Positions 30,835 through 53,484 of a stretch of DNA of 54,868 nucleotides are shown one piece after another. The notes under the pieces were generated by a model. That model was not told where the DNA came from. It searched no databases and was given only the letters and a program-made list of their open reading frames with translations. Within the stretch, counting starts at the first letter, position 1, and every line of letters begins with the position of its first letter. Both the position numbers and the translations under genes were made by a program. This DNA is from Muribaculaceae bacterium (lineage in GTDB: Bacteria; Bacteroidota; Bacteroidia; Bacteroidales; Muribaculaceae): contig JAFQSX010000006.1 in assembly GCA_017409345.1 (NCBI GenBank), forward strand, positions 1-54,868. The letters run 5' to 3'.

Positions 30835-30836
30835 GC

Positions 30837-33041: not shown

Positions 33042-33082
33042 TCATTAAACGCTAAACTCTAATCATTAAACACTCTAATACT

Positions 33083-34039: not shown

Positions 34040-34074
34040 TAAATCTTAAATTTTAACCATTAAACACTTGAATT

Positions 34075-34650: not shown

Positions 34651-34662
34651 TAAATCACTGCT

Positions 34663-35304: not shown

Positions 35305-35308
35305 TACT

Positions 35309-36429: not shown

Positions 36430-36430
36430 T

Positions 36431-37350: not shown

Positions 37351-39007
37351 AAAGATATATTTCAACACTCCTCAAAGACTGACGCAGTTAATCGGGGCGA
37401 ACACTTCCGTGATCGTCGCTGGTCGTCGTACTGGTAAGACCGACTCGATTGCGTCACCTTTCGTGTTACGAAATATGCAGCGTATGCCCGGCTCTACTGG
37501 TGGTATAGTCGTGCCTACTTTCAAGCATGGCTTGACTAACACGCTACCAGGCCTCTTTGCAGCTTGGAAGCGTTGGGGATTTATCAATGGCATTCATTAT
37601 GTCGTCGGTCGTCGCCCACCCAAATCGTTCGCTAAGCCTATCATCGAGCCGTCGGACTATGAGCATGTCATTTCCTTTTACAATGGCTCGTGTGCAATTA
37701 TCATTTCACAAGATAGACCGGGCTCGTCTAACTCGCTGACGCTCTCTTGGATTCTTGTCGATGAAGCGAAGTTCGTGGATTATGAACGGCTTAAAGATGA
37801 AACGCTTCCTGCTAATGGTGGTATCAAATCGCATTTCGGTCATCATTCGTGCAACCACTCGATGATGATTCTTTCGGATATGCCTCAGACTCAAAAAGGT
37901 TCGTGGTTCTTGCACTATGAGGACAAAATGGATAAGGAACTTATCGCCACCATTGAGGGTACTGTGTATGAGATATGGAGAACTAAGGAGCGTATTCGCG
38001 CCCTTAACGCAAAGGGTGTGACTGTCCCCCCTTATCTCAAATCGTACCTTCGTCGCCTCGATACAAACCTGAATAAAATGCGTTCGGTCGCTGTTTACTA
38101 CAAGGAGTATTCTTCGATTGAAAATCTTCAACTCCTTGGCGAAAGCTACATCAAGCAGATGAAACGCGACCTCACTCCGAAGACTTTCCAAACCTCTATC
38201 CTGTGTCAGAGGATCGGAATAGCCAAAGACGGATTTTATTCATCGATGAAAGAAAGTCATAAATACAACGCGAGTAATTTTGAATTTCTCGATGAGCAAT
38301 TCAAAAGTTTAATGTGTAATGATGAATGTTTAATGGACAGCTCGTTAAACTCTAAACTTTCAACATTAAACTCGCTTTGTGACGCTGATGTCAATCCTCT
38401 TGCTCCAATCTGCATTGGTATGGACTACAACGCCAATATCAACTGGATTGTTGCCGGTCAGCCTAATGGCCGACGATTGAACATCATAAAATCGTTTTAT
38501 GTCAAATTCGAGCGTAAAATCCCGGCGCTTATTGAGGAGTTTTGTCGTTACTACGCCAATCATCAAAATAAGACGGTGGTCTATTATTACGACACTACCG
38601 CACTCGGTGCAAACTATGCCGTAAACGAGCAAGATTTCCACTGGGTAGTGTGCCACGAATTTGAACGACACGGCTGGCAAGTGGAAGATGTGTATCTCGG
38701 CAACCCTATGCGACACGATGAAAAATACTTGCTTATCAATCAGGGATTTGCTGGCAGGCAACGGCTAATGCCTTTTTTCAATCGTCAGAACAACGATGAC
38801 CTTATCCTCGCTGTTCAGTCGGCTGGCGTTACTCGTGGTCGCAATGGTTTTCGTAAAGACAAAGGTGGCGAGAAGTTAGCCGAAACGGAGGAAGACTTGC
38901 TTCAACATCGCACCGACGGAACAGACGCATTTGATACGCTCTACATCGGTTGCGAAAAATTCCCTTTTCAATTTATTGAAAGATTTTCATCTTCAGGGAT
39001 TATGTAG
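37328..39007 (+). CDS. Phage terminase large subunit
   Basis: The 559-aa protein is the packaging motor. Its ATPase part has Walker A VAGRRTGKTDS (about residues 30-40) and Walker B LSWILVDEAKF. The nuclease part has MDYNANINW, YYYDTTALG and HRTDGTDAFD with the acidic metal ligands. Between the two, residues about 327-349 are a Ser/Leu/Asn-rich insert encoded by short inverted repeats of the AGTTTAATG type. The insert keeps the frame. The gene is the last of the late operon visible here. No portal gene follows; defence and RiPP genes do. Confidence 0.88.
   Translation: MTTMNADKKIYFNTPQRLTQLIGANTSVIVAGRRTGKTDSIASPFVLRNMQRMPGSTGGIVVPTFKHGLTNTLPGLFAAWKRWGFINGIHYVVGRRPPKSFAKPIIEPSDYEHVISFYNGSCAIIISQDRPGSSNSLTLSWILVDEAKFVDYERLKDETLPANGGIKSHFGHHSCNHSMMILSDMPQTQKGSWFLHYEDKMDKELIATIEGTVYEIWRTKERIRALNAKGVTVPPYLKSYLRRLDTNLNKMRSVAVYYKEYSSIENLQLLGESYIKQMKRDLTPKTFQTSILCQRIGIAKDGFYSSMKESHKYNASNFEFLDEQFKSLMCNDECLMDSSLNSKLSTLNSLCDADVNPLAPICIGMDYNANINWIVAGQPNGRRLNIIKSFYVKFERKIPALIEEFCRYYANHQNKTVVYYYDTTALGANYAVNEQDFHWVVCHEFERHGWQVEDVYLGNPMRHDEKYLLINQGFAGRQRLMPFFNRQNNDDLILAVQSAGVTRGRNGFRKDKGGEKLAETEEDLLQHRTDGTDAFDTLYIGCEKFPFQFIERFSSSGIM
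38306..38372. repeat. Inverted-repeat insert inside terminase gene
   Basis: AGTTTAATG at 38306-38314 and CATTAAACT at 38364-38372 are inverted copies. The inside is filled with more TTTAATG/TTAAACTC words (for example GAATGTTTAATGG and CGTTAAACTCTAAAC). Related words ATTAAAC occur in spacers between late genes (33041-33082, 34058). The insert is 67 bp long including its ends and reads as about 22 codons in frame. Confidence 0.5.
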
Positions 39008-40389: not shown

Positions 40390-41337
40390 TTATTGCTGTT
40401 TTATCATCTTTATTATTCTTCCGCCAAACATTAAACCTATTTTCTTAACATATTCATCAGTGGAAGACAATAACCGATTTAATAGGTCCTGATACATTTG
40501 CAAGTCTAATTTGAAATCCCATTTCCCTTTTTCTGCATATATTTTTACAGCAATTGACGCTATGTATAATATTTTACAGCACAACCATTCTTCTGCATTG
40601 TATCGTAATTTATGGATTTTCAAATAGTCATATAAATCATTTGCTACCGCAATATGGTTTTCAGCTCGAAATAATGTATTTGAATTTTTACCGGTTATTG
40701 ATTCAGAATGCTTACAATAAGCATAATGCAACACACCACTTACATATACTTTTGTTGCATTACACATTGCAATGCTAGTCCACAAATCATCTTCAGACAT
40801 TTTATGACAAAATCTCAAATTATATTTGTCAATAAAATCTTTCTTGAATAAATAGCAGAACACCAATGGAGTAAATGTATTTGTTCGCATTAGAGTTGCA
40901 AAACATTCTTGTCCATTTAATTCAGTATTTTGTAATTTGGCATATGGCTGCCATTTCCATGCATTTTCATTTAAAGCATTGTAAAATACCCCTCCAATCG
41001 CAATTTCTGAATTTGATAATTTGAATTGATGATATAAATCTTCAAATCCTTGTTTGATTATATAATCATCACTATCAACAAACGCGATTATATCACCTTG
41101 ACAAACTGATAAACCTAAGTTCCTTGCCTCCGAAACGCCTTTATTTTCTTGTTGGTATAATTTTATCAACCCATTATCTGCATATGATTTTACAACTTGA
41201 CATGAACTATCTGTCGAACCATCATCAATTACAATTATCTCTTTTGAAATATGCAATTCTAAAACAGAATCAATACATTTTTCTATGTATTTCTTCGAAT
41301 TATATAATGGTATTATTACTGACAACAGATGTTTCAT
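40390..41337 (-). CDS. GT2-family glycosyltransferase (RiPP cluster)
   Basis: The 315-aa protein is a GT-A fold family 2 glycosyltransferase. It has the N-terminal LSVIIPLYNSKKYIEKCIDSVL, IIVIDDGSTDSS, and the metal/nucleotide-sugar DxD motif in DIIAFVDSDDY. No membrane segments are evident. It is the last gene of the minus-strand cluster, directly after the exporter (1-bp gap). It is therefore likely to modify the peptide or a cell-surface group linked to immunity. A sugar-transfer role is certain at family level; the acceptor is unknown. Confidence 0.88.
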   Translation of the reverse strand: MKHLLSVIIPLYNSKKYIEKCIDSVLELHISKEIIVIDDGSTDSSCQVVKSYADNGLIKLYQQENKGVSEARNLGLSVCQGDIIAFVDSDDYIIKQGFEDLYHQFKLSNSEIAIGGVFYNALNENAWKWQPYAKLQNTELNGQECFATLMRTNTFTPLVFCYLFKKDFIDKYNLRFCHKMSEDDLWTSIAMCNATKVYVSGVLHYAYCKHSESITGKNSNTLFRAENHIAVANDLYDYLKIHKLRYNAEEWLCCKILYIASIAVKIYAEKGKWDFKLDLQMYQDLLNRLLSSTDEYVKKIGLMFGGRIIKMIKQQ

Positions 41338-41338
41338 A

Positions 41339-43531
41339 TTATTTTTCTAATTCTAATTGGTTTTTAATTAATTCATAATACTTGCCCCGTTTTGCAACTA
41401 GTTCTTTATGAGTCCCTTGTTCTGCAATTCTACCATCTTCTAGAAAAATAATATTATCCGCTTTAACCACAGTACTCAATCTATGAGCAACTACAATAAC
41501 CGTTCTATTTTTAAAGAAATCATCAAGATTATCCATTATTCGACGCTCATTTACCGTATCCAGTGATGATGTTGCCTCGTCTAAAATCAATAGTTCAGGA
41601 TTCTTATATAATGCCCTTGCTATTAAAATTCGTTGTTTTTGCCCTTGGCTCAATTCTATACCTGTTGAACCTATTTTCATATTATATTTTCCGGGCTGTT
41701 TTTGTATGAACTCGTCTATACTAGCCATTTTTGAAACTAATTCAACCCTCGATTCATCAATATTTTCTGAACCTAATGTGATATTTTCAGTTATTGTTCC
41801 ACTGAAAATTTTTCCATCTTGCAATACTACTCCACAACAATTTCTCCATGAATTAATATCGATTTTATTTATCGGAGTTTCATCTATCGTTATTTTCCCT
41901 TTCTGTGGATAATAGAATCCCATTATTAATTTCAAAAGAGTAGTCTTTCCACTTCCACTATTACCGACAATAGCAGTCATTTTATTTGCAGGGAATGAAA
42001 TGGATAAATCTTCAAATATATTGGGGCTAAAACTTCCCTCATATTTGAATGAGACATTAGATATTGTTATTCCTTGTTTAAAATGCTGAATTAGTGTTCC
42101 TTGACAATCTTGTTGTTCATCTTCTTTTCTTTGAACCTCTGATAATCGAGCCATTGACACTTTAAACATCTGATACTGGGTGATAAGAGACTGTATTTGC
42201 TCTATTGGTCCACCTAACTGTCCTAAAATGTAACTGATACTCATTAATATACCAATAGTTAAATCTCCTTCAATCGCAATTATACAACAATAACAAATTA
42301 TTACAATATCTCTTAGCCGATTCATCGTATTTCGACCGACATTTTGTTTATAATTGATTGTCATCTGTTTTAATATCAGTTCATTTATACGGTTTTGACT
42401 TCCTTCCCATTTTTTTGTTTCTGTTTTTTGAGCATTGTTGATTTTTATATCAGGCATGTTATGAATTATCTCATATAATAAATTCCGATTTTTCGCATTT
42501 TCTGTGAATAGCGAATAATCTATGAATTTTCTTTCGTGTAAGAAATAAAGATCCCATAACGAAACGAATACAGACATTATCGTAAATATAATTACGGCTT
42601 CCCAACTATAATAAGACAACAATATAAAATATACTATCGCATTTATTAAGTAATAAACAATATTGATTAAATTGTCTGTTAGAAAGGAACGAATCCTATT
42701 AAAATCATCTAGCCGTTGTATAAATTCGGTGTTTAATCTGGTGTCAAAATATTTCATTGGTAATCGCAAGATTTTCCGTAATAATTCTCCAACATAATCT
42801 ATTCCGACGCTTAAATTGACTTTGCTTAATATGATTGAACTAAGTGTACTAGATACCGTATAGCCAATAAAAAAAGAAAGTTGAATCAAAAATAACTTTA
42901 AAACTGTATGAATGTCTTTATTTGCGACACCTTTATCAATGATGGCCTCATATAAATAAGGAATCACCCAACTACACATCATTGAAAATATCAATAATGT
43001 TACAGAGTTGTATATTTTCTGTTTATTTGGTATATATTTTTTCAGAAATGATATTGCAATTGACCAATCGTTTTTAGATTTGGATAAATTTAAGTTATAA
43101 AAAGCATGTGTTGGCTTTAGAAATATAACCAAACCAAATTCTTTGCCTGAAAGCCAATTTCGTTCAAATTCTTCTTGTGAAAATTTCATTTTTCCATTTG
43201 AAGGGTCTGCAACATAAAAAGAGTTCGTGTTATTTTTGTGTTTCTTTATTTTGTATAATATGATAAAGTGATTGTTGTTCCAATGTACGATTACAGGTGA
43301 TTGAATTTTCGTTAATTGGTTTATGCTTGCTTTTGCAACCAATGTATCAAAGCCTAAATCAGTGGCACGGTCTTTGATGTCTCTAATTGTCACACCAATA
43401 CGAGATATGCTCATACCGGCTTTAATATATTGCTGTGACATAGCTTTTCCATAAAAAGCACAGACCATTTGCAGACATGCTGGACCACAGTCTGTGCTTT
43501 CCATTTGCCAATAGAATTTAAATTTATCCAA
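41339..43531 (-). CDS. Peptidase-containing ABC transporter (C39 bacteriocin exporter)
   Basis: The 730-aa protein combines a C39 leader peptidase, a six-helix exporter domain and an ATPase. The peptidase has ESTDCGPACLQM with catalytic Cys15, then VHWNNNHFIILYKI with His and VADPSNGKMKF with Asp. The ATPase has Walker A GNSGSGKTTLL, signature LSQGQKQRILIARAL and Walker B LLILDEATSSLD. It cleaves the leader and secretes the modified peptide. The start is a TTG at 43531; the first ATG (43504) would cut into the peptidase fold. It lies 11 bp after the beta-barrel gene. No HlyD-type adaptor is encoded in the cluster. Confidence 0.93.
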   Translation of the reverse strand: MDKFKFYWQMESTDCGPACLQMVCAFYGKAMSQQYIKAGMSISRIGVTIRDIKDRATDLGFDTLVAKASINQLTKIQSPVIVHWNNNHFIILYKIKKHKNNTNSFYVADPSNGKMKFSQEEFERNWLSGKEFGLVIFLKPTHAFYNLNLSKSKNDWSIAISFLKKYIPNKQKIYNSVTLLIFSMMCSWVIPYLYEAIIDKGVANKDIHTVLKLFLIQLSFFIGYTVSSTLSSIILSKVNLSVGIDYVGELLRKILRLPMKYFDTRLNTEFIQRLDDFNRIRSFLTDNLINIVYYLINAIVYFILLSYYSWEAVIIFTIMSVFVSLWDLYFLHERKFIDYSLFTENAKNRNLLYEIIHNMPDIKINNAQKTETKKWEGSQNRINELILKQMTINYKQNVGRNTMNRLRDIVIICYCCIIAIEGDLTIGILMSISYILGQLGGPIEQIQSLITQYQMFKVSMARLSEVQRKEDEQQDCQGTLIQHFKQGITISNVSFKYEGSFSPNIFEDLSISFPANKMTAIVGNSGSGKTTLLKLIMGFYYPQKGKITIDETPINKIDINSWRNCCGVVLQDGKIFSGTITENITLGSENIDESRVELVSKMASIDEFIQKQPGKYNMKIGSTGIELSQGQKQRILIARALYKNPELLILDEATSSLDTVNERRIMDNLDDFFKNRTVIVVAHRLSTVVKADNIIFLEDGRIAEQGTHKELVAKRGKYYELIKNQLELEK

Positions 43532-43542
43532 AATATCGAATC

Positions 43543-45891
43543 TTAGTAATTAATATCTACTCCTCGTTCTACTCCATCATTATTTAATGTTCGTTTTGCT
43601 TTCTTTTGCTGTTTGCCAAAGTCAAAACTATAGTTTATACCCAACATTACCATATTTGCATTATTTCTAATATTCTGGGTATAATTTTCAGGGTGAACAT
43701 CTGATACGGTTATACTTTCATAAGTGCTACCTCGTTTTGTGAACAGATTTACGCCTGTTGCTGAAAAATACCAATTCTTATAATTGTATTGAACTGATAT
43801 TGTATTCCAACGGTCTGTCGAACTAAATACGTTTCCTGATAAATTATATCGTGGAGCGACATCGTAATTCACAGATATCAACCAATCTCCAAATTTAAAC
43901 GAACCATTTAATGAGGCATACAATCTGTTTTTAGTGTAGTTCTCTTTGGAAACATATATATTATAACTGTCCCAACCAAGTTTGCCCCATAATGTAGCAA
44001 AACCAAACAGATTTTGTACCGATAGATTTAATTCAAGGTTTATCAAATCATCATGGTTCCCGTTTATCGGTTTGCTCATGAATTTATCGTAATAAGGACT
44101 TGAGACATCACTGATGTAACTATATGCATAATAAATAGGATTAAAAGTTCTGCTATGTGCAGCCCACAATGAACCTGTAAACTTTTTATAAGCATATCTT
44201 ACATATATCCTATTACGAAGATATTCTGATGGCTTCAAGTTAGGATTACCTTGACGCACCGATATATCATCTATTGTTTGAACCATATTTGATTGTTGGG
44301 AGATAGACGGCATTGATGGATCATACATTAAAAGATAATTTAATGTGACATACTGTGATAGTGGGTAATTCATATTAAAATTGGTTTTCAGCCTAACAGC
44401 ATTTACTGTATATGAATTATTATCACTATGATTATAAACCCCATTGGCGCTTAAAGAATATCTCAACTTGCTAATTCTTCCGGAAACCTGACCATATACT
44501 GATAATCGATTTTGATTAATCTCGTCATTTTCTATGACATTATTCTCGGTCTGTTCGTTTCGTGTGCTGTTATAATAGTCCTGAATACCGAAATTCGCTG
44601 TCAGATGACTAAATGTCTTTGAATACATAAACTCAAAACCTGCTCGCCATGACTTATTTGTTGTAAATGTTATTGTAGTGTCATTTCCCGATATAAAATC
44701 ATACTCATTTATATAATTTCTTTCATAATCGCCCGACGAATATCTGCCATATACATTTGCTTCAATATATTGAGTTTTATCTATCTGTTTCTTGAAAAAT
44801 AGGTCTAAGTTAGGTGATTTGAAATTATTGTTTCGATGGGTTAGATTTGTATATTCCAACATCTCGTTTTTATAGGATTGTATATTCCATGAGTTATCAT
44901 CAAGTTTCTGATCTTCAAATGCCACACCTATTTGAGCCATAAAAATCGTATTGGGATTATGCATATAAGTATATCCTAGTAACAATTCGTTACTTAAATA
45001 ATTGAAATCACTCGGTATGCCAATTCTATTTCTTGTAACTATCTCATCTCTACCGATAAATTCACTCTTTGAACTTATTTCACGTTCATCATAATCGCGC
45101 CAATTTACACGATAGTTCAAATCCCATTCTGATTTCCCACTATGATAGTTAACACCTATATTCCCGTTAAGGTAACCGGTTGTAACAGCCGAACTCAAAT
45201 TACCGGCTACTGTGCCACCATCTTCACGTGGTTTTAGAAGTACATTAATAACTTGACGGTTACCATATCTTACATCGGGGTTGTCTTGATATTCTATTCG
45301 TAAAACATCTTTGGGATTCAGCGACAAGAATTGGGTTAAACTGCTCGGCTTTCCATTAATCTTAAAAACCGGTGTTTTATCATCAACCTTGACACTTTGT
45401 AAAGTTTCATTTACAACAAGCCCGGGCATTTTGTATTGCAGATTATTTAGCAATGATAATCCGTTTGATGATTGTGTTATTTCACTGACAGATGGTATGA
45501 TTATATATCTGTCAGGTTTCTGAATTACCGACTGTGCAGTTACAATTACTTCACCCAATTCCCTAGAAAATGGTTTGAGTTTCACTATACCGAGATCTAC
45601 AAACTCATCTGTTGTTCCTGTTACAGATATATAAACTGTAGTATAATCTTCTTTGGTAATTTCTATTAGCAAAGTAGAGTCATTTACATTTGCAGACGCA
45701 AATTGTCCAAATTCATCGGTCTCAATGCCAACCCTTACTTTATTTACACTATTGCGACCTATTACTACAGCTTTTCGTATTGGTTTTTCTGTTTCATTCA
45801 CGATAGTTCCTTTTATTACATAAGCGTGTGAGCATATGGATTGCAACAGAAAAAACATTGCTAAAATTTTTCTTTGAATATTTTTTTTCAT
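43543..45891 (-). CDS. Outer-membrane beta-barrel protein with N-terminal carboxypeptidase-like domain
   Basis: The 782-aa product begins with a signal peptide (MKKNIQRKILAMFFLLQSICSHA). A carboxypeptidase regulatory-like domain (VIKGTIVNETEKPIRKAVVIG) is followed by a plug-like region (LPQGNEVIVTAQS-type: GEVIVTAQSVIQKPDRYIIIPS). The rest is a long beta-barrel of the OMP_b-brl_3 / TonB-receptor-like type. It may import or export the peptide across the outer membrane, or give self-protection. No TonB box is evident. It shares the operon with the exporter and lacks a SusD partner, so nutrient uptake is unlikely. Confidence 0.8.
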   Translation of the reverse strand: MKKNIQRKILAMFFLLQSICSHAYVIKGTIVNETEKPIRKAVVIGRNSVNKVRVGIETDEFGQFASANVNDSTLLIEITKEDYTTVYISVTGTTDEFVDLGIVKLKPFSRELGEVIVTAQSVIQKPDRYIIIPSVSEITQSSNGLSLLNNLQYKMPGLVVNETLQSVKVDDKTPVFKINGKPSSLTQFLSLNPKDVLRIEYQDNPDVRYGNRQVINVLLKPREDGGTVAGNLSSAVTTGYLNGNIGVNYHSGKSEWDLNYRVNWRDYDEREISSKSEFIGRDEIVTRNRIGIPSDFNYLSNELLLGYTYMHNPNTIFMAQIGVAFEDQKLDDNSWNIQSYKNEMLEYTNLTHRNNNFKSPNLDLFFKKQIDKTQYIEANVYGRYSSGDYERNYINEYDFISGNDTTITFTTNKSWRAGFEFMYSKTFSHLTANFGIQDYYNSTRNEQTENNVIENDEINQNRLSVYGQVSGRISKLRYSLSANGVYNHSDNNSYTVNAVRLKTNFNMNYPLSQYVTLNYLLMYDPSMPSISQQSNMVQTIDDISVRQGNPNLKPSEYLRNRIYVRYAYKKFTGSLWAAHSRTFNPIYYAYSYISDVSSPYYDKFMSKPINGNHDDLINLELNLSVQNLFGFATLWGKLGWDSYNIYVSKENYTKNRLYASLNGSFKFGDWLISVNYDVAPRYNLSGNVFSSTDRWNTISVQYNYKNWYFSATGVNLFTKRGSTYESITVSDVHPENYTQNIRNNANMVMLGINYSFDFGKQQKKAKRTLNNDGVERGVDINY

Positions 45892-45986
45892 ATCGTATTA
45901 TTTTTTACGTGAGAAATGTTATGTTATTTTCATAATAGTAGTTTTTTCTATTAAATGCTCAAAAAAACTACTAAATATTACCGTCA

Positions 45987-45994
45987 CAAATATA
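45987..45994 (-). promoter_or_regulatory. Putative promoter of the beta-barrel/exporter operon
   Basis: On the minus strand TATATTTG fits TAnnTTTG, and it lies in the 204-bp gap between the maturase and beta-barrel genes, about 96 bp before the ATG. No clear -33 element. Confidence 0.3.
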
Positions 45995-46095
45995 CATTAA
46001 ATAAACCTATTTTATTTGATTTTATATATTTTGTAAAGATAATACTATGAGTATCTGCTTTTTACATGAATAAAGCATACAAATCGCATTCCTCC

Positions 46096-47361
46096 TTAGG
46101 TTTTATGTAACATACTTTTCCATTTAAAAATTATGTTATATAAAAATTTATTCATTACTGCGTTCATTTTTTTTTCTTCATTAAAGCCAAATATGCAATA
46201 ATTACATCCATTCTCTAATGGTTTTGATGAACAACCTCCATGACATATTGGCAACAGATTACATTCCAAACATGGTTTATTTGAGAATTTTGCTGCCATA
46301 CGTTTTTCAAGGCTATTGTTTTCCCAAATAATATCTCCATTAGAATCTAAATAACCATCTCGCTTCTCTTCTTCAAAATTTACTGCAGTACATTTATAGA
46401 CATCACCATTGTAATTTATTACGGCACTATTTCTTAAATCACCATAACAATAAGAACCAAGTACAAATTTTGATGCGACAAATCCAGCCTCGATAAAAGC
46501 ACTTATTGATTTCTCGATTTCGTTGCTTTCAAGTTCGCCCTCTTGCCAAACTTTGTGGAATGACACATTTATAAATCTTCTCTCGTCATCAGGAATATCA
46601 CTAAAGTCTGTTGGAATATCTGCTATACTATGTATATTTTCTTTAGTATAGTTAATTCTTAATGTTACAGAAACATGATTTCTTGCTAGTTCTTTTATAT
46701 TCTCAATGATTTTATCATAAGAACCTTTCCCACTTGCATAACATCGGGTCTTATTGTGAACATCTCTATTTCCATCCAACGTAATCTGTGCAAAATTAAA
46801 ATTGAGTTCTTTTAATTCCGCTATGCGTGTTTTATTAAATAAAGAACCATTTGTAGTGCAGTTCGTCGTAAAATTCACGCCATTTTCCAATGCAATTTTC
46901 TTGGCATATTTTATTATTGGCAACATCACATCATCATAGTAGATTAATGGTTCTCCGCCAAAGAACGAAATCGTTAAATTTTCCGCTTTTCGACAGGATT
47001 TCACTATTAATCTTTTTATGTTATCTATTGTCGCTTCAGACATTTTTGAGGGGACATGTTTTTCATAACAATACCAACATCTAAAATTACAATTTATTGT
47101 AGGATTAATTATTAGATGGGCACTAGTTTCATCGCACTCAATTTGACGTGCTTTTTCCAGACATAACTGTGTTTCATCTGTATTGTCATCAACAATGAAT
47201 CCTCCCTTTTTAAGATTATTATAACATGAATTATTGTTATTTCGAAGGCTGGCTTCCAATAGTCCTTTCTTCAAAAAAACATATTTGTCTGATAAGCTGT
47301 TATAGATTATATCTGTATCTTTTGATACAGATATTGGAATATTATATTTACTATATTTCAT
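46096..47361 (-). CDS. Radical SAM/SPASM peptide maturase
   Basis: This 421-aa enzyme most likely installs crosslinks, such as thioethers, on the Cys-rich precursor encoded next door. It has an N-terminal region (KYNIPISVSKDTDIIYNSLSDKYVFL) common in Bacteroidetes maturases. The radical SAM motif is CNFRCWYC (Cys91, Cys95, Cys98), followed by SFFGGEPL. A SPASM domain near the C-terminus has CYGDL...GDVYKC, CLECNLLPICHGGC and CNYC, giving two auxiliary 4Fe-4S clusters. ATG at 47361 is preferred over the GTG at 47406, which lies in the hairpin before this gene. Chemistry is inferred from the family. Confidence 0.9.
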   Translation of the reverse strand: MKYSKYNIPISVSKDTDIIYNSLSDKYVFLKKGLLEASLRNNNNSCYNNLKKGGFIVDDNTDETQLCLEKARQIECDETSAHLIINPTINCNFRCWYCYEKHVPSKMSEATIDNIKRLIVKSCRKAENLTISFFGGEPLIYYDDVMLPIIKYAKKIALENGVNFTTNCTTNGSLFNKTRIAELKELNFNFAQITLDGNRDVHNKTRCYASGKGSYDKIIENIKELARNHVSVTLRINYTKENIHSIADIPTDFSDIPDDERRFINVSFHKVWQEGELESNEIEKSISAFIEAGFVASKFVLGSYCYGDLRNSAVINYNGDVYKCTAVNFEEEKRDGYLDSNGDIIWENNSLEKRMAAKFSNKPCLECNLLPICHGGCSSKPLENGCNYCIFGFNEEKKMNAVMNKFLYNIIFKWKSMLHKT

Positions 47362-47374
47362 ATTTTTTTTAAAA

Positions 47375-47406
47375 GTGTCACTAATAACCGAAATTATTAG
47401 TGACAC
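47375..47406 (-). terminator. Attenuator hairpin between precursor and maturase genes
   Basis: A perfect 13-bp stem GTGTCACTAATAA / TTATTAGTGACAC has a 6-nt loop and, on the minus strand, is followed by TTTT. It lies 21 bp after the precursor stop and before the maturase ATG. It should reduce read-through so that more precursor than enzyme is made. Confidence 0.6.
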
Positions 47407-47427
47407 AGATTAATGATTTAATACAAT

Positions 47428-47631
47428 TTAGCTGCCAGCACAACCTGCGATACAGTTAGCTCCGTGGCAGTTGTTAGTACATCCTGTTTTTGAACAGTTC
47501 GCATCTGTGTTGCAAGCACCATTATTCCCACTTGTACCAACCATTCCATCTAATAAGATAGAATCTTCTTCTGTTAAGACTGTCATTTCAAGACCCTCGA
47601 CAAATTCTTTTAGTTCATCTGTTTCTTTCAT
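47428..47631 (-). CDS. RiPP precursor peptide, cysteine-rich
   Basis: The 67-aa peptide has an acidic leader (MKETDELKEFVEGLEMTV, then LTEEDSILLDG) and a core with six cysteines at residues 40, 46, 51, 55, 60 and 64 plus Ser/Thr/Gly/Asn. Spacing is C5C4C3C4C3C. Adjacent genes encode a radical SAM/SPASM maturase and a C39 exporter, so this is the likely substrate. No exact Gly-Gly leader site is present; the C39 peptidase might cut after DGMVG or near GTSGNNGA. Thioether or sactionine-type links, with sugar on Ser/Thr or Cys, are plausible. I know no named peptide with this core. Confidence 0.82.
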   Translation of the reverse strand: MKETDELKEFVEGLEMTVLTEEDSILLDGMVGTSGNNGACNTDANCSKTGCTNNCHGANCIAGCAGS

Positions 47632-47691
47632 GTTGAAAACATTTAAATGATTAATAATTGATTTGATTAAAAACTCTGTTAACAGGTATTA

Positions 47692-48816
47692 TTATATTAA
47701 AATTTTTTTTATTTTTAATTCGCGTATTGCATTTAATTCGAGATTTTGTTTTATCGAAGTCTCTTTCTTTAATTGGAGAACATTGTTTATAACTTCAAAT
47801 TCTGTTGGCTCTAATTTCTTTATGATAAATCGGGTAAATCGATTTAACAGCCAATAGATTCCATTGCCTTGAATTATCGTATAGTCTGCATTAAATTTTA
47901 GGTCTGTCATATTTAATGCTTGTATATGTTTCGTTTCTTCTGTTATTTTAGCGATTATATTATTCTCAAGTTCTTTATTCGTAGATGAAAGAATTTCTGC
48001 AAGCGCACTACTATTATTTTGTCCTTTTGCGAAGATGTTTATTATATCCTCATAGACCAAATTCTCAGGCAATGCACCATCCAATCTTCCACCTATTGTT
48101 CCTTGGAAAAACTCGTAATAATATTGTAGGATATTTGTTTCGGTTGGGACTCCTCCATAACCTCGTTCTCCTATCACAATAAATGGTTTGTTGTGCTTAA
48201 TCGCATATAAAATCGCATATCCTGAGCCTATTACCATTTTACTTTGGATTACATGCTGTTCGATAGAACTACTACTATCTGATATGGTTATATTTGAATT
48301 TAAGATATTTCGCAAATTAGTATTTTTGCTACATATGTCAATCGTATATTGTGTTAAGCGATTTAATGTTCTTAATATCTTAAACAATGCACTATCTGCA
48401 TATAAGAACTCTCCAGTATTTACATAAATATCATATTTATTGTTCTTGTTTGAAGTTCCTTCTATTTGATGAAAATCAAAAGGAACAGCTATTTTGGTTG
48501 AAGTTTGCAGGTATGGATATAGAATATTGATATCCAAATCATTCACCCAAAAGGTAAAATCTATCAATGTTTCATTTGTATGGAAATGTTTTGATACATC
48601 TGAACGATATAGAAATCTTATTATAGAGATTTGGGCTGATTGCTTTCTTTTTATCACCTCGGAACTGATATCACCAACACAAATAATACAGTCTGCATAA
48701 TCATCAGTTTTGACTATTTCAATGCCATTTTTAGCAATGAGCATATTATGAACTGTATTATACAATGTATCGTACTTTGATGATTTTTGTGCAGTATTTA
48801 CTAAAGAGACTTTCAT
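47692..48816 (-). CDS. GT-B-like protein of the RiPP cluster (putative glycosyltransferase)
   Basis: The 374-aa protein has no clear family name. The C-terminal half contains SKMVIGSGYAILYAIKHNKPFIVIGERGYGGVPTETNI, similar in style to the donor-binding loop of GT-B glycosyltransferases. The N-terminal half has alternating strands and helices. It overlaps the stop of the two-domain glycosyltransferase upstream by 4 bp (ATGA), so both are translated together. A glycosyl or related transfer in the peptide pathway is inferred. Polysaccharide pyruvyl-transferase-like folds are an alternative. Confidence 0.5.
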   Translation of the reverse strand: MKVSLVNTAQKSSKYDTLYNTVHNMLIAKNGIEIVKTDDYADCIICVGDISSEVIKRKQSAQISIIRFLYRSDVSKHFHTNETLIDFTFWVNDLDINILYPYLQTSTKIAVPFDFHQIEGTSNKNNKYDIYVNTGEFLYADSALFKILRTLNRLTQYTIDICSKNTNLRNILNSNITISDSSSSIEQHVIQSKMVIGSGYAILYAIKHNKPFIVIGERGYGGVPTETNILQYYYEFFQGTIGGRLDGALPENLVYEDIINIFAKGQNNSSALAEILSSTNKELENNIIAKITEETKHIQALNMTDLKFNADYTIIQGNGIYWLLNRFTRFIIKKLEPTEFEVINNVLQLKKETSIKQNLELNAIRELKIKKILI

Positions 48817-50408
48817 ATTCTATGAGAAATTAAGTTTTTTGATATTTCATTTAATTTAGCAAATGTGATTTCATTAACTTTTCCCAAATTGGGTAATGCA
48901 TTTTCTCCGAAATGTTCATAACTACTCTGACTGCCTTCGTCATCTTCTTGTTGATAGAAAGCATATTTTTTCATACGATCTTCTGTTGTCAAAAGCCCAT
49001 AATGTTTAATGAGCAACTTACTTGCAATGCCTGAACTAGCGACCGTAGGAGCCTGATGAAAATGCAATTTTCCTCGGTTAGAAAATATTTGGGTATGCCC
49101 AATGTTTCGTATCATTTTATATCTAAAGCATATTCCATTTACCGAACTAGGATATTGTGAATTATAATATTTTTCACTATCCCATAAATGAATATATGGT
49201 ATCATATAGGCATTCGCAATATCAACATCAAGATACTCATGAATGTTACAAAACTGTTCATCTAACAATTCATCTACATCTAAAAAAAATGCTACCTTAT
49301 GATTGACAAAAGAAGCTAAATCTAATAGGATATTACGATTTTCTAAGTCATTAAATTGAGTTCTCTTCTTTTGTGCTTTTATTATAATTTTATCACTTTC
49401 AATTAAGTTATAAGTGTTATCAGTGCTCTCATCATCAAGTATGACAATCCCATCAAAGTGAACTGATACTAACTTCAGGAAATGGGTTATTCGTTTACTT
49501 TCGTTATAACTTTGAACTAATAATATTACAGGATATGACTTCTTGTTATATCCTGTAGTCATCTCATATTTGATAAATTTCTGGTTGGCATAATTTTGCA
49601 ACTGTTGTTCTGCATATTTGTTATTACTCCAATCATAAATTATTTCATCAAAATCCTGCCCCCAATTCTCACCATTTGCAATTGCATTTGTGGGGAAAAA
49701 GAAATGACGCAATGCGTTATTGGGAGTTTTCTCGAATGGCTCGCCTCTGCGTTTTTTACCTTCGTTATTATTTATATCTCTATGAGCCATCATTGCCTCA
49801 TTAAAATACAATTCTTTCACCCCAATCATATCGAAACGAGACCGGATATTATTATCATCACCTCCCCATTTTGAAAGTGTTTCGTCATATCCATGTATCT
49901 GTTCTGCATGTTCTCTCTCAAACATTATGCTTCCAAATGGAATCGACCTATAATTATTAAAGGTTTTTACCGTAATTTCTTCTTCGTCGGCAAAACAAAC
50001 TCTACCGATAGCATAATGTGGATAATTGGAATAGTCGTCAAAAGACTTTCGTAATATGTATATAACATCAGTTACCATTTCTGATTCGGGGGAACAAACC
50101 ATCACATATTTTTTTGTTGCATGACGTATTCCGACATTTAAAGGCTTCGCTGGATTTCGCCATTCATGTGGTTTATCATTCATTACAATACGCCAATTTA
50201 CAAATGGATATTGTTGAATATATGATAATAATTCTTCACTTTCCAACGGAGTATCAAGTACAATAACCACTTCTATTCCATTTCTTTCAAAATATTTCCG
50301 ATTCAATGGAAATACTCTGCGAAATTCTGCCATCTTTTTATAGAACGGAATAACAACACTAACATCAAAATTCTTCCAAAACTCCTCTTTCACCTTAAAT
50401 GAAACCAT
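48813..50408 (-). CDS. Two-domain GT-A glycosyltransferase (RiPP cluster)
   Basis: The 531-aa protein has two GT-A-like domains. Domain 1 (about residues 10-260) has FDVSVVIPFYKKMAEFRRVFPL, VIVLDTPLES and WGGDDNNIRSRF, the galactosyltransferase-type WGxED-like motif. Domain 2 (about residues 285-500) has YPVILLVQSYNESKRITHF, IVILDDESTDNTYNLI and AFFLDVDELL, a GT2-type DxD. It could add two sugars in turn. It is the second gene of the main cluster transcript, coupled to the GT-B-like gene by a 4-bp overlap. Confidence 0.75.
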   Translation of the reverse strand: MVSFKVKEEFWKNFDVSVVIPFYKKMAEFRRVFPLNRKYFERNGIEVVIVLDTPLESEELLSYIQQYPFVNWRIVMNDKPHEWRNPAKPLNVGIRHATKKYVMVCSPESEMVTDVIYILRKSFDDYSNYPHYAIGRVCFADEEEITVKTFNNYRSIPFGSIMFEREHAEQIHGYDETLSKWGGDDNNIRSRFDMIGVKELYFNEAMMAHRDINNNEGKKRRGEPFEKTPNNALRHFFFPTNAIANGENWGQDFDEIIYDWSNNKYAEQQLQNYANQKFIKYEMTTGYNKKSYPVILLVQSYNESKRITHFLKLVSVHFDGIVILDDESTDNTYNLIESDKIIIKAQKKRTQFNDLENRNILLDLASFVNHKVAFFLDVDELLDEQFCNIHEYLDVDIANAYMIPYIHLWDSEKYYNSQYPSSVNGICFRYKMIRNIGHTQIFSNRGKLHFHQAPTVASSGIASKLLIKHYGLLTTEDRMKKYAFYQQEDDEGSQSSYEHFGENALPNLGKVNEITFAKLNEISKNLISHRI

Positions 50409-50424
50409 CCTTTAATAAAAGATA

Positions 50425-50799
50425 TTATAATTCATAATAACCATAATATTCTGATGTCGCAGACATTACAACTATCATATATTCTCCTGGATACTGAGCA
50501 ACATTAATACTAGCACTACCTGCAGAAGTTTCAATGATTGATCTTTCACTATATCCATTAGTAATACTTGTTATTATAACTTCGACATCTCCCAAATTCT
50601 CAAAAAAAGAAAATTCTAATGTGCCATAATTATATATACACTCAATTGGTATATAGCTAGGTGTTCTTGGAACAATTGTTTCTTTTTTCTCAGTGCGATA
50701 TAATTCTATTGGCACTGATTGATTGTTAGTCTCACCATTTACGATAAATGAAATTGTTAACGCAAATGTTACAATAATTGATTTTACTGAAATTTTCAT
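50425..50799 (-). CDS. Small secreted DUF3244-like protein
   Basis: The 124-aa protein has a signal peptide (MKISVKSIIVTFALTISFIVNG). Its single Ig-like module resembles DUF3244 proteins of Bacteroidetes: PIELYRTEKK, FSFFENLGDVEVIITSITNGYSERSIIETSAGS, and a C-terminal YPGEYMIVVMSATSEYYGYYEL. It lies first in the minus-strand transcript, 16 bp before the two-domain glycosyltransferase gene. It could act as an immunity or surface-binding protein. No catalytic site is visible. Confidence 0.65.
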   Translation of the reverse strand: MKISVKSIIVTFALTISFIVNGETNNQSVPIELYRTEKKETIVPRTPSYIPIECIYNYGTLEFSFFENLGDVEVIITSITNGYSERSIIETSAGSASINVAQYPGEYMIVVMSATSEYYGYYEL

Positions 50800-50824
50800 T
50801 GTTTTTTATTTTACTTTGACATTG

Positions 50825-50832
50825 CAAAAATA
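50825..50832 (-). promoter_or_regulatory. Putative promoter of the RiPP precursor/glycosylation operon
   Basis: On the minus strand TATTTTTG fits TAnnTTTG, about 26 bp before the DUF3244-like ATG. A good -33 TTG is not visible, so activation by a regulator is possible. Confidence 0.35.
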
Positions 50833-50911
50833 CGGAGGAATTTGTTGTGCTGTATTGTTCTTAGTTGTAAAAATATCTTTCATAACTCTCCGTAATTCGT
50901 TGCACAACAGA

Positions 50912-50958
50912 AGTTTAACTGGGTGATAGAAAATAATTTTCTATCACCCAGTTAAACT
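50912..50958. promoter_or_regulatory. Perfect 23-bp-arm palindrome
   Basis: Arms 50912-50934 and 50936-50958 are perfectly complementary with a single-base centre. The arms start AGTTTAACTGGGTGATAG. It lies between the TPR sensor gene stop and the DUF3244-like gene. There is no following T-run on either strand, so an operator or recombination site is as likely as a terminator. Confidence 0.6.
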
Positions 50959-51028
50959 CCCTGACAATCAGCCACTTACTCTATGATATTGTGCAATGGG
51001 GGGGGGTACTCTGTTGATTATCAGCTGA

Positions 51029-52681
51029 TTATGCTAAATACCCCAAGATTATATCTGTGTTTTGGGGATTTATTTGTATAATCTTTTCTTTTAACCTTGA
51101 TTTTCGCAAATAAATGTTTGATTGTTTTTTTTCAAGTAAGAGACTAATCAATTTGCCTGAAAAACCTGCATAATGGTAACATAGTTGATGATAATCTTCC
51201 TCTTCTAAAGTAGGTACTTCTGTTCTCAACTTTTCCATAACATTATCACAATATTTATTAACCAACACTTCTAATTCTTGAAATGTTTTTTTCTCTTTAA
51301 ATCTCTCTACAATATATTTCACCTCATTGTATACAATCTTTTGCCCTTTGGGATCATTTGTCTGATTAAAAATAGTATCTCCAATACTATTCAAAACTTT
51401 ATATTGTTCTTTGAATGAGTTTTGTAATAATTCGGATACAATGTTCTTATTCTCTTGATGTTTTTGCTGTAATTCTTCTATAAAATCTGCATATTCTGAT
51501 ATTTTATATTCTCGTTTCTTTATTAAATTACGTAAATATATAAATATTGTGATACCGAACAGAAATATTATTAATCCAATGAATATACTAGTCTGCATTT
51601 GACTCTTTTGTTTGTATTTATTGAATTCTAATTCTTTCTCAAGATAATCTTTTTGAATCGCTATAATAGGATGCTCTAAACGCTTGCGTACGGCTTTATT
51701 CTCCAGTACTTTTGCATCACATAAATTCTCATATGCACTTTTATAATCTTTTTTTAAAGCAGCAATTTTCGCTTTGTTAATCTCAATAAATACAGAATCT
51801 CCATTATCTTCTGCTTTCTCTTTTGCAATCTGCATATATTCAGATGATAGTTTAATATTGCTATTGTAAACATATAATAAAGCTGTCGCAGAAAAAAAAT
51901 CGGACGTTTTATTTTTTATAGAGTAATTACTTATTAAAGAATCTAATAGAGAATTTGCCTTCTCAAATTGTTCGTTCTGAGTTAAATATACTATTAAATC
52001 ACTTAAACATACAGAAACTAAAGTAGTGTCGTTAGCATTTTCTGCCTCTTTTATAATTCTATAATAAGTATTTATTGTATTATTCAAGTCATGTGGTAAA
52101 ATTGCATAAATAGTTGCTTCATTATATTTTGCATAACGACAATGACTATATTTGTTTGCTTTATCATAATACTGATATGACAGTTGATATGAGTTTAATG
52201 CTTTAGAATAATCATAATATTTCTCATAAATAAAACCTAATTGAGTGTAAAGCAACCCTTTTATAAAATCATCTTCAAACTCATCAATTAATTGTTCCGC
52301 TTTTGTATATGCTAATATTGATTTCGCATAATTTTGTGCATTATAGTATATCCTCCCTTGATAATATAATGACAAGAATTTTTCTTTTGCCGTTCCATTT
52401 TCATTATAATACTCCACAGCAATATTTATAAGAGAATCATTTGTTTCATCAATATAATTTTTATCTAATGCTTGAGAATACAACAATGCGTAACGAGCAT
52501 TTTGAGAATCATTCAATCCTTTAGTCTTATCAAGACCATTTAAAATAATTAATGCAGAGTCTGGTTTTTCGTTCATCAACTCTTCTGCTTTATCCATATG
52601 CTCATTTATCTTTGCATTCTCACAACTTACAATAATTATTGTAGCAAATAGGACTATTATTAATCTATAAAATTTTTTCAT
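51029..52681 (-). CDS. TPR-repeat membrane lipoprotein sensor with intracellular C-terminus (putative regulator)
   Basis: The 550-aa protein has an N-terminal lipobox-like signal (MKKFYRLIIVLFATIIIVSC). TPR-like repeats follow (about residues 30-340: LYYQGRIYYNAQNYAKSILAYTKAEQL, LGFIYEKYYDYSKALNSYQLSYQYYD). One membrane helix follows (MQTSIFIGLIIFLFGITIFIYLRNL, about residues 365-390). The C-terminal cytoplasmic part ends DYHQLCYHYAGFSGKLISLLLEKKQSNIYLRKSRLKEKI, resembling an HTH region of Bacteroidetes TPR regulators. It precedes the RiPP genes on the same strand and may control them in response to an external cue. Start at 52681 is preferred to TTG at 52696. Confidence 0.7.
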   Translation of the reverse strand: MKKFYRLIIVLFATIIIVSCENAKINEHMDKAEELMNEKPDSALIILNGLDKTKGLNDSQNARYALLYSQALDKNYIDETNDSLINIAVEYYNENGTAKEKFLSLYYQGRIYYNAQNYAKSILAYTKAEQLIDEFEDDFIKGLLYTQLGFIYEKYYDYSKALNSYQLSYQYYDKANKYSHCRYAKYNEATIYAILPHDLNNTINTYYRIIKEAENANDTTLVSVCLSDLIVYLTQNEQFEKANSLLDSLISNYSIKNKTSDFFSATALLYVYNSNIKLSSEYMQIAKEKAEDNGDSVFIEINKAKIAALKKDYKSAYENLCDAKVLENKAVRKRLEHPIIAIQKDYLEKELEFNKYKQKSQMQTSIFIGLIIFLFGITIFIYLRNLIKKREYKISEYADFIEELQQKHQENKNIVSELLQNSFKEQYKVLNSIGDTIFNQTNDPKGQKIVYNEVKYIVERFKEKKTFQELEVLVNKYCDNVMEKLRTEVPTLEEEDYHQLCYHYAGFSGKLISLLLEKKQSNIYLRKSRLKEKIIQINPQNTDIILGYLA

Positions 52682-53198
52682 CACTTTTTTTTGCAAATTT
52701 ACAAAAAATAATAATTACAAGTATGTACTAATATGATTAATAGTTATCTGATACGGATTATTTGATTTGCAATGAAGTCTATATGTACTTCTCGATCGCA
52801 ACTGACTTCGGTAAACATCATTTAATCCTCATATAAGACCACTTGGTTCTTCGCATTTATAGGCGAGCCGAGTGGTTTTCTTTTCTTGTTATCGGGCAAT
52901 CCTTTACTGCTCGAAGTTCCATTACTGTGTCTTATTTTACAGCTTGATTTGATGATACAATGGCTGTCGCTTTTCGTCACACTTTGATATTTCACTACGC
53001 AAAGTTCGGGTATCATTCACTACACAAGGACACTGCAAGTTATCCGAAATTTCTCCAGCCCTTTCGGGTAGTAAATTATCTAAGATAATCCTTGATGTTT
53101 AACGGCAACCTGCCTGTTCACTTGCATACCCACTTGATTGCGCGTAAAAATCAAGTGCGAAAGCACATTATTGTTAAATCATTAAATCGTAAAATAAT
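52682..53198. other. Intergenic region right of the RiPP cluster
   Basis: No gene that I can support lies here. It includes a terminator-like hairpin at 52838-52880, an AT-rich stretch upstream of the TPR gene, and the leader of the small gene at 53199 with the 12-mer TTTCGGGTAGTA at 53062-53073. Confidence 0.45.
52838..52880 (+). terminator. Rho-independent terminator, plus strand
   Basis: ACCACTTGGTT...CGC pairs with GCG...AGCCGAGTGGT through G-T wobbles, followed by TTTTCTTTT. No plus-strand gene precedes it here, so it may end a small RNA or read-through transcript. Confidence 0.55.
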
Positions 53199-53426
53199 AT
53201 GACACATTCAGTTCAAACATCGGTAATGGATTTCGGTAACAATTCAGTAAATAATCGTTCTCGCTACATCAAAAATGCGATGAAGTTTTACCAAGTGTAT
53301 ATTGAGGATTTTGATAATGAAGTTTACTCTTACGAAGTCGAGGCTCGCAATGATGAAGAAGCAGCTAACAAAGCCGAACAAATGTTCAATGGCGACATCT
53401 ATACAATGTATGTCTATCTAATGTAA
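53199..53426 (+). CDS. Small DpnD/PcfM-like protein
   Basis: The 75-aa product has the C-terminal pattern KFYQVYIEDFDNEVYSYEVEARNDEEAANKAEQMF, matching the style of the short DpnD/PcfM-like domain (strand-helix-strand with V-E-A-x-x-(D/E)-E-A). Function is unknown; such genes are common in mobile elements. It has its own leader and a terminator 27 bp after the stop. A related start (MNEYKVYTKSNWWRIEADDDVEA) is at the window end. Confidence 0.5.
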   Translation: MTHSVQTSVMDFGNNSVNNRSRYIKNAMKFYQVYIEDFDNEVYSYEVEARNDEEAANKAEQMFNGDIYTMYVYLM

Positions 53427-53452
53427 AAGATAGATATTCACACCTTCTCAAA

Positions 53453-53484
53453 GGTGCTTGCTTCAAGCAAGTGCCTTTTCTTTT
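53453..53484 (+). terminator. Rho-independent terminator after small gene
   Basis: GGTGCTTGC / GCAAGTGCC forms a 9-bp stem with a 5-nt loop (TTCAA), followed by TTTTCTTTT. Confidence 0.65.

What the first reader, a model, noticed from the sequence alone, without database searches (positions are those of the whole stretch)
40390..52681. Phage-borne RiPP cluster combining radical SAM maturation and multiple glycosyltransferases
One strand holds, in order of transcription, a TPR sensor, a DUF3244-like secreted protein, a two-domain GT-A enzyme, a GT-B-like protein, a 67-aa Cys-rich precursor, a radical SAM/SPASM maturase, an outer-membrane barrel, a C39 exporter and a GT2 enzyme. Radical SAM chemistry together with two or three sugar transferases acting on one six-Cys core is a combination I do not know as a described class. 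The cluster lies between terminase and later genes of a phage-like element, so a lysogen could gain a competitive peptide from its prophage.
Basis: partly seen in the sequence, partly recalled or inferred. Interest (0 to 1): 0.88.

Follow-up and report, generated by a model that had tools for sequence, protein, structure and literature searches.

The report
Predicted glycopeptide cluster inside a prophage
A Bacteroidales bacterium carries, inside a resident virus, a complete gene set that probably makes, crosslinks, sugar-coats and secretes a small cysteine-rich peptide, which may help the infected bacterium compete with its neighbours.

Summary
The gene list is right: nine minus-strand genes (52681-40390) encode a TPR regulator, a DUF3244-like secreted protein, a two-domain glycosyltransferase (GT2x2), an unassigned 374-aa protein, a 67-aa six-Cys precursor, a radical SAM/SPASM maturase, an outer-membrane protein, a C39 exporter and a GT2 enzyme. 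They form one unit: GT2x2 was found in six loci (five genomes), each with a radical SAM gene (two of them broken) and a Cys-rich precursor. By sequence, the nearest solved structures are SunS, a peptide S-glycosyltransferase, for its second domain and CteB, a ranthipeptide maturase, for the radical SAM. The cluster lies inside a prophage, between the terminase and two phage genes that flank other cargo (e.g. restriction-modification) in three relatives; in G172, another genus, the same cluster stands straight behind a remnant of the same terminase. The claim that radical SAM plus glycosyltransferases is undescribed is wrong: NCBIfam's GG-Bacteroidales system and a 2023 survey record it. The window cluster fails that system's tests but shares GT2x2 with it. 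New variant of a known kind; chemistry, sugar acceptor and activity are inferred.

The parts
51029..52681 (-). TPR membrane regulator: N-terminal hydrophobic segment ending ..IVSC, TPR region, one transmembrane segment, C-terminal cytoplasmic domain; distant from BT3442 family
   Evidence: (BT3442_fam 53.5 bits, cut-off 940); signal and TM read by eye; start ATG at 52681 rather than the TTG at 52696
52694..52701 (-). Bacteroides-type -7 box TAAATTTG upstream of the TPR gene
   Evidence: read by eye; consensus TAnnTTTG is recalled, not tested
50912..50958 (-). perfect 23-bp inverted repeat between TPR and DUF3244-like genes, terminator-like
50825..50832 (-). -7-like box TATTTTTG upstream of the DUF3244-like gene, so a possible operon start
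   Evidence: read by eye; consensus recalled
50425..50799 (-). DUF3244-like secreted protein (124 aa)
   Evidence: 14.9 bits, cut-off 25; among 9 similar-sized neighbours in other loci only 2 match DUF3244, both below cut-off
48813..50408 (-). GT2x2: two-domain GT-A glycosyltransferase, N-domain Glyco_transf_7C type, C-domain SunS-like (DVDE)
47692..48816 (-). 374-aa protein of no known family, translationally coupled to GT2x2; GT-B-like only by inspection
   Evidence: partial relative (27%) beside GT2x2 in L245
47428..47631 (-). 67-aa precursor: conserved leader to ..LLDGMVGTSG, six-Cys core
46096..47406 (-). radical SAM/SPASM maturase (likely start at internal Met16, where relatives start)
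43543..45891 (-). 782-aa outer-membrane protein of the cluster
41339..43531 (-). C39 peptidase-containing ABC exporter, DCGPAC and NNNHF motifs present
   Evidence: motif roles recalled
40390..41337 (-). GT2 glycosyltransferase (DSDD), last gene of the operon
   Evidence: 47% relative in phage contig L093
40326..40367 (+). 17-bp terminator-like hairpin in the convergent gap at the operon's 3' end
37328..39007 (+). phage terminase large subunit, left anchor of the cargo site
   Evidence: remnant of the same gene behind the G172 cluster
32052..33041 (+). phage head maturation protease (ClpP type)
53199..53426 (+). 75-aa phage gene, right anchor
   Evidence: relatives downstream of terminase, same strand, in L139, L184, L185, L189, L196; elsewhere in L143 and L146
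54275..54742 (+). 155-aa phage gene, second right anchor
   Evidence: relatives in L184, L187, L189, L196, upstream of a portal-type gene in L196

Best explanation
The cluster is a RiPP operon carried as cargo in the variable site of a temperate Bacteroidales phage. The radical SAM/SPASM enzyme binds the leader and probably forms thioether crosslinks in the Cys-rich core. GT2x2 (whose second domain is SunS-like), its coupled partner and perhaps the terminal GT2 add sugar to the crosslinked peptide. The C39 exporter removes the leader and exports the product, with the 782-aa outer-membrane protein as exit or receptor. The TPR/DUF3244-like pair controls expression. The lysogen then releases a glycosylated thioether peptide, most likely a bacteriocin. 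Shown: gene content, operon packing, co-conservation, intact motifs, phage flanks. Inferred: the chemistry, the sugar acceptor, export route, regulation and activity.
For: GT2x2-GTBl-PREC-rSAM-OMP-C39-GT2 order conserved in G172 and, with one extra OMP, in G233:C36, and decayed in G288. GT2x2 is the best conserved gene (71-72% against 47-49% for rSAM and 32-38% for the neighbouring OMP). All 6 GT2x2 loci found sit with rSAM and a Cys-rich precursor, including two in another family with a different rSAM type. PDB: the GT2x2 C-domain hits only SunS and 7MSK at E up to 0.01; the cluster's separate GT2 hits 34 sequences at E up to 0.001, not SunS. rSAM: CX3CX2C and seven-Cys SPASM pattern invariant in 7 of 7 aligned; 5WGG (CteB) is the best PDB match. 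Terminase-[cargo]-ph53199-ph54275 order in L184, L189, L196. In G172 a terminase remnant (residues about 401-559, 77% DNA identity over 422 bases) ends about 130 bases from the same GT2 gene, same orientation as in the window. L093, a separate contig with 92% identical terminase, has there minus-strand cargo with a GT2 (47%).
Against: The best-scoring precursor homologue (G233:C51, 66% identical) stands in a locus without GTs, so GTs are not needed for that kind of core; G233 does hold the GT set on another contig. On the rSAM tree the GT set needs 2 changes within its clade (quick tree). SunS model score is 35.7 bits against a cut-off of 350. The 374-aa protein has no family or fold evidence. 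No immunity gene was recognised. Patterns from rSAM, GT2x2, C39 and GT2 found no relative in viral contigs. Of 93 other terminase loci (65 with at least 3 kb downstream) none holds rSAM, C39, GT2x2 or the precursor. The G233:C36 and G288 clusters show no gene of this phage nearby. The window contig ends before tail genes.
Confidence: 0.62

Rival explanations
1. The glycosyltransferases act on a surface glycan or on the outer-membrane protein (self-immunity, or surface change that blocks superinfection), not on the peptide.
For: Prophage GTs often alter surface glycans (recalled). The cluster's GT2 resembles glycan-type GT2s in the PDB and not SunS. A related core occurs without GTs.
Against: GT2x2 was found only beside rSAM and precursors (6 of 6 loci), also where no gene of this phage is near (G233:C36, G288, G735), and its C-domain is closest to SunS.
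Confidence: 0.2
2. The product is a signal, or another non-killing surface peptide, rather than a bacteriocin.
For: No immunity gene recognised; TPR genes recur in this rSAM family and in the cargo region of three phage loci with no RiPP gene seen (L106, L113, L180).
Against: Some cargo at the same site in sister phages is of the defence kind (type I R-M, DNA methylase, GmrSD), which favours a competitive role; weak evidence.
Confidence: 0.25
3. The cluster is chromosomal DNA beside a phage remnant, or a mis-assembly, not phage cargo.
For: G+C falls from 0.42 to 0.30 at the terminase edge; contig ends before tail genes; the next head gene was not found elsewhere in the 75%-complete genome (no positive control); two relatives lie away from this phage. 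The right-hand anchors are found in only 8 of 102 terminase loci, and in 2 of the 8 (L143, L146) the 75-aa gene's relative lies elsewhere.
Against: Both flanks carry genes of the same phage family in the right order and strand; in G172, another genus and assembly, the same cluster lies behind the same terminase gene; L093 and L092 have minus-strand cargo straight after a 92% identical terminase.
Confidence: 0.08
4. The cluster is a decayed, silent copy.
For: The G288 relative is decayed.
Against: All nine window ORFs are open and of the length of their relatives, with motifs intact.
Confidence: 0.06

Closest known systems
Sublancin system of the SP-beta prophage (SunA/SunS/SunT)
   Same: Prophage-borne, leader-cleaving ABC exporter, S-glucosylated peptide, SunS-related transferase; lysogens inhibit non-lysogens (PMC4336743, passages seen)
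   Different: No radical SAM enzyme in its operon as described there; GT2x2 has a second GT domain and scores 35.7 bits against the SunS-family cut-off of 350; no Bdb oxidoreductase or SunI was recognised among the window ORFs scanned; Gram-positive host
GG-Bacteroidales radical SAM peptide system (NCBIfam TIGR04148/TIGR04149/TIGR04157)
   Same: Bacteroidales, rSAM plus glycosyltransferase plus GG-type Cys-rich peptide; a GT2x2 relative (38%, 42%) lies beside one in G735:C29
   Different: Window genome has no TIGR04149 precursor; window rSAM scores 61.6 bits against a cut-off of 300; no TIGR04157 hit over cut-off
Bacteroidales rSAM/PCAT/OMP/TPR RiPP clusters in PMC10352776
   Same: rSAM, C39 exporter, OMP, TPR gene, GG-leader precursors in various sets; rSAM+GlyS areas counted (abstract, passages and section 13 seen)
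   Different: No phage, prophage or bacteriophage in its held text; 41 of its 53 GlyS-bearing areas also have LanC
Ranthipeptide and related maturases: CteB, PapB, CefB, geopeptide and Clo7bot families
   Same: rSAM/SPASM sequence similarity and Cys-rich targets
   Different: All NCBIfam scores are below the curated cut-offs; crosslink chemistry unknown here

Membership tests
Radical SAM/SPASM RiPP maturase | CX3CX2C cluster motif | tested here: met
   C106, C110, C113 invariant in 7 of 7 aligned
Radical SAM/SPASM RiPP maturase | seven-Cys SPASM pattern C-gap-GX4C ... CX2CX5CX3C ... C (pattern recalled) | tested here: met
   C320, G334/C339, C379, C382, C388, C392, C404 invariant; Pfam SPASM itself just below cut-off
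Radical SAM/SPASM RiPP maturase | adjacent Cys-rich precursor | tested here: met
Named NCBIfam maturase (geopeptide, TIGR04463, CefB, Clo7bot, PapB) | score over curated cut-off | tested here: not met
   best 164.4 bits, cut-off 400
Ranthipeptide | beta/gamma thioether crosslinks | not testable with these tools
   needs mass spectrometry or NMR
GG-Bacteroidales peptide system | TIGR04149 precursor | tested here: not met
   0 matches in G000 (75% complete), 4 over cut-off in G735
GG-Bacteroidales peptide system | TIGR04148 maturase over 300 bits | tested here: not met
   window rSAM 61.6 bits
GG-Bacteroidales peptide system | TIGR04157 glycosyltransferase over 400 bits | tested here: not met
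   no G000 match over cut-off, none on contig C1
Glycocin (SunS type) | SunS-family transferase over cut-off | tested here: not met
   35.7 bits, cut-off 350; homology itself E 1.3e-8
Glycocin (SunS type) | C39 exporter and double-Gly leader | tested here: inconclusive
   C39 domain with its motifs is met; leader reads LLDG or GMVG rather than GG, GG in relative G281
Glycocin (SunS type) | sugar on a core Cys or Ser | not testable with these tools
   needs mass spectrometry
Temperate phage cargo | phage structural genes, and phage genes on both sides in family order | tested here: met
Temperate phage cargo | same cluster with the same phage gene in another genome | tested here: met
   terminase remnant behind the G172 cluster; not found beside G233:C36 or G288
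Temperate phage cargo | complete, inducible prophage with integrase, tail genes and att sites | tested here: inconclusive
   contig ends at 54868 before tail genes; no integrase among the ORFs that I scanned; att sites not sought

The most novel reading that the evidence does not exclude
A family of Bacteroidales temperate phages keeps a cargo site behind the terminase that swaps defence systems for whole peptide-antibiotic operons and has carried this one into at least two genera. Here it holds a crosslinked and S-glycosylated peptide made by joining a radical SAM maturase to a SunS-like two-domain transferase and an unassigned partner enzyme: a Gram-negative counterpart of sublancin with chemistry (thioether plus S-sugar on one core) that my searches did not find in any described product.
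Probability: 0.33. Interest if true: 0.85.

Novelty: new variant of a known kind. Interest (0 to 1): 0.65.

Why it matters
If the product is both crosslinked and glycosylated, it would join two RiPP chemistries that are known apart, and the natural pairs with and without the transferases (G233 holds both) make the role of the sugar directly testable. The prophage setting would give lysogeny in Bacteroidales a concrete competitive benefit, as sublancin does in Bacillus, and points to a cargo site where more such operons can be sought.

Tried and rejected
Rejected: 'undescribed combination' (PMC10352776; NCBIfam TIGR04148/04149/04157 in G735). Rejected: membership in the GG-Bacteroidales system (three features not met). 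Rejected: GTs from a polysaccharide locus (6 of 6 GT2x2 loci beside rSAM). Rejected as unlikely: chance juxtaposition with phage genes.

Led nowhere: viral-contig scans for rSAM, GT2x2, GT2 and C39 gave no relative. Plasmids and phages gave no GT2x2 match. The phages collection gave 40 records with distant rSAM matches, 5 covering 80% or more of the query, best listed 27% identical; not followed. PDB searches with the 374-aa protein and its profile gave nothing. A search of G000 for the next head gene gave nothing, without a positive control. The sigma-70 scan is uninformative here (101 found, 91.7 expected). The 62-aa fragment at the end of L093 looks to my eye like a barrel C-terminus, but no tool matched it to the window OMP even at E 10. 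The small proteins beside the TPR genes in L113 and L180 match the window DUF3244-like protein only at E 0.01 or worse. The OMP-like protein of L184 matches at E 5e-9 by blastp but not by tblastn at 1e-5. The careful rSAM tree did not finish, so one search is the quick tree. The GT labels on it are by BLAST within 7 kb on the same strand, 27 of 93 rows being cut by contig ends, so 'no GT' is an upper bound; 2 of 90 loci gave no row, L012 and L079, L079 having a broken rSAM; weaker rSAM places were not fetched. Precursors for the Asn count were picked by rule, not curated; a few may be false ORFs, and kinship is not corrected for. Papers: PMC10352776 (abstract, passages, section 13), PMC11118758, PMC12360287 and PMC4336743 (passages only); all others from search listings only.
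Full report
WHAT IS THERE. The window is the whole contig C1 (54,868 bases) of a 2.09-Mb, 75%-complete genome in 38 contigs. Its family (f1) is taken to be Bacteroidales because two f1 loci are identical to records titled Porphyromonadaceae and Bacteroidales (L212/L015 and L224/L020). Nine minus-strand genes run from 52681 to 40390. Pfam and NCBIfam support the radical SAM, the C39 exporter and both glycosyltransferases; DUF3244, TPR and barrel labels are below cut-offs, and the 374-aa protein has no credible family. Packing is operon-like. A perfect 23-bp inverted repeat lies between the TPR and DUF3244-like genes, and a terminator-like hairpin closes the operon. TAnnTTTG boxes (consensus recalled, read by eye) precede the TPR and DUF3244-like genes.

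ONE PATHWAY. The precursor has homologues at 7 places in 5 of 397 family genomes, the window counted. All 7 lie beside a radical SAM gene; 4 of the 7 (window, G233:C36, G172, G288) also have GT2x2 and the 374-aa gene, 3 (two in G233:C51, one in G281) do not. GT2x2 occurs in 4 of 397 family genomes and in 2 of 395 genomes drawn from the class, one of them the window's own and the other G735, with two loci. All 6 loci have a radical SAM gene and a Cys-rich precursor nearby. In G288 the radical SAM frame is broken and no C39 gene was found downstream; in G735:C3 the radical SAM match is split by a stop. On G735:C29 the neighbours include a TIGR04148 maturase, TIGR04149 precursors and a TIGR04157 glycosyltransferase over cut-off. 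So GT2x2 keeps company with radical SAM peptides even when the maturase type changes. It is also the best conserved gene: 71-72% identity, against 54-55% for the 374-aa protein, 62-67% for the precursor, 47-49% for the radical SAM, 52-60% for C39, 58-60% for GT2 and 32-38% for the neighbouring OMP.

CHEMISTRY, INFERRED. The maturase keeps CX3CX2C and a full seven-Cys SPASM pattern in 7 of 7 proteins aligned. Its best solved relative by sequence is 5WGG (CteB, name from PMC10352776), then 5V1Q (SuiB, name recalled); the profile of 7 again ranks 5WGG first. The second domain of GT2x2 matches SunS (E 1.3e-8) and 7MSK and nothing else at E up to 0.01; its first domain weakly matches chondroitin synthase. 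As a control, the cluster's separate GT2 matches 34 PDB sequences at E up to 0.001, SunS not among them. Across 79 rule-picked precursors of the wider family, 222 of 493 Cys have Asn at -1 or +2, against 131.5 (sd 8.8, maximum 158 in 500 shuffles) when the other letters are shuffled; Asn at -3 is the strongest single position, 158 of 481. This suggests that Asn is part of the recognition or crosslink motif, as a lead only.

THE WIDER FAMILY. Of 93 radical SAM rows (88 different), 66 have no GT detected within 7 kb, 24 have another type and 3 have GT2x2; 27 of the 93 are cut by contig ends. In 17 of the 24 the GT protein is 746-867 aa; of 3 of these scanned all have two GT2 domains and 2 a LanC-like domain. 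The window's clade of 7 (support 99, quick tree) mixes 3 with GT2x2 and 4 without, needing 2 changes. Transferases thus look like add-on modules. The best-scoring precursor homologue (66% identical) stands without them in G233:C51, in a genome that has the GT set on another contig; this speaks against an obligate link between sugar and core.

THE PROPHAGE. Genes 32052-39007 include a head maturation protease and a terminase. The terminase has relatives in 68 viral contigs and matches at E up to 1e-20, some distant, in 45 of 149 family genomes, the window's own counted. In L184, L189 and L196 the order is terminase, variable genes, ph53199, ph54275 (named from window coordinates); L196 goes on to a portal-type gene. 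L187 has terminase and ph54275; L139 and L185 have terminase then ph53199. The stretch between terminase and ph53199 is 0.45 kb in L139, 1.5 kb in L185, 4.4 to 8.3 kb in L184, L189 and L196, and 14.2 kb in the window. Against this, either right anchor was found in only 8 of 102 terminase loci, and in L143 and L146 the ph53199 relative lies elsewhere. Cargo at the site: type I R-M genes in L196, a DNA methylase in L189, a cNMP-binding protein and a weakly OMP-like protein in L184. Behind the terminase in other loci, without anchors seen, are a GmrSD-like gene (L099) and TPR genes (L106, L113, L180). L093 (92% identical terminase) has a minus-strand transglycosylase-amidase, a GT2 47% identical to the window's, a GT7C protein and a protein with a weak LanKC match (20.1 bits).

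A SECOND PHAGE-LINKED COPY. In G172, a different genus, the 3' part of the same terminase (residues about 401-559, in two frames, 77% DNA identity over 422 bases to window 38528-38949) ends about 130 bases from the GT2 gene, which points towards it exactly as in the window. No other gene of this phage was found there, so G172 seems to hold the cluster and a scrap of the phage. G233:C36, G288 and G735 show none. Among 68 viral contigs and 25 host loci with this terminase (65 of 93 with at least 3 kb downstream) none other holds rSAM, C39, GT2x2 or the precursor, so among those sampled the operon is a rare cargo.

COMPARISON. Sublancin is the nearest in life-style: prophage-borne, S-glucosylated, exported by a leader-cleaving transporter, inhibiting non-lysogens (PMC4336743, passages). 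PMC10352776 (abstract, passages and section 13) counts 7 rSAM+GlyS and 41 rSAM+LanC+GlyS areas in 1,136 Bacteroidales genomes and describes clusters of rSAM with PCAT, OMP or TPR genes; phage, prophage and bacteriophage do not occur in its held text. My searches listed no paper that by title or abstract start concerns a prophage-borne radical SAM glycopeptide in Bacteroidales; the library is open-access only. Mycofactocin (PMC7491314, listing and abstract start only) is a glycosylated RiPP whose maturase is a radical SAM enzyme (the last point recalled).

VERDICT. Observation confirmed; single pathway and phage location well supported; chemistry and function inferred; novelty claim reduced to a new variant of a known kind.

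Noticed in passing
L093 1873-6245, L092: Phage contigs with 92% identical terminase carry at the same site a fused transglycosylase-amidase; L093 goes on with GT2, a GT7C-type GT and a weakly LanKC-like protein: perhaps another peptide operon.
   Followed up: partly
L025, L016, L015, L228, L216 and others: A GT2-GT2 protein of 746-867 aa, in two of three scanned with a LanC-like domain, sits beside radical SAM genes in 17 of 93 rows.
   Followed up: partly
precursors in L002-L242: Asn is strongly enriched near core Cys (222 of 493 at -1 or +2; shuffled mean 131.5), e.g. NNCxC and GGxCxN motifs: a possible crosslink rule.
   Followed up: partly
L196, L189, L184, L099, L147, L106, L113, L180: The region behind this phage terminase holds varied genes: type I R-M, DNA methylase, cNMP-binding protein, GmrSD-like gene, LRR protein, TPR genes.
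   Followed up: partly
L074 2457-2935: Broken 3' part of the same terminase gene behind the G172 cluster.
   Followed up: partly
L079 9383-10206: In G288 the precursor frame runs into the C-terminal half of the radical SAM gene and GT2x2 is interrupted: a decaying cluster.
   Followed up: no
window 30087-31784: Antirestriction ArdA and an Abi_2 abortive-infection-like gene in the phage part.
   Followed up: no
window 582-3072: HpaII-type restriction endonuclease and C5 cytosine methylase.
   Followed up: no
window 11875-12945: YhcG/DUF1016-type PDDEXK nuclease gene.
   Followed up: no
window 3992-21885: Iron hydrogenase large-subunit domain protein (3992-5449), BATS/radical SAM protein (13637-15061), HydF (15080-16579) and a catalase (20425-21885).
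   Followed up: no
window 52840-54270: About 1.4 kb with no ORF over 90 aa and only the 75-aa gene at 53199 supported by relatives; unexplained.
   Followed up: no
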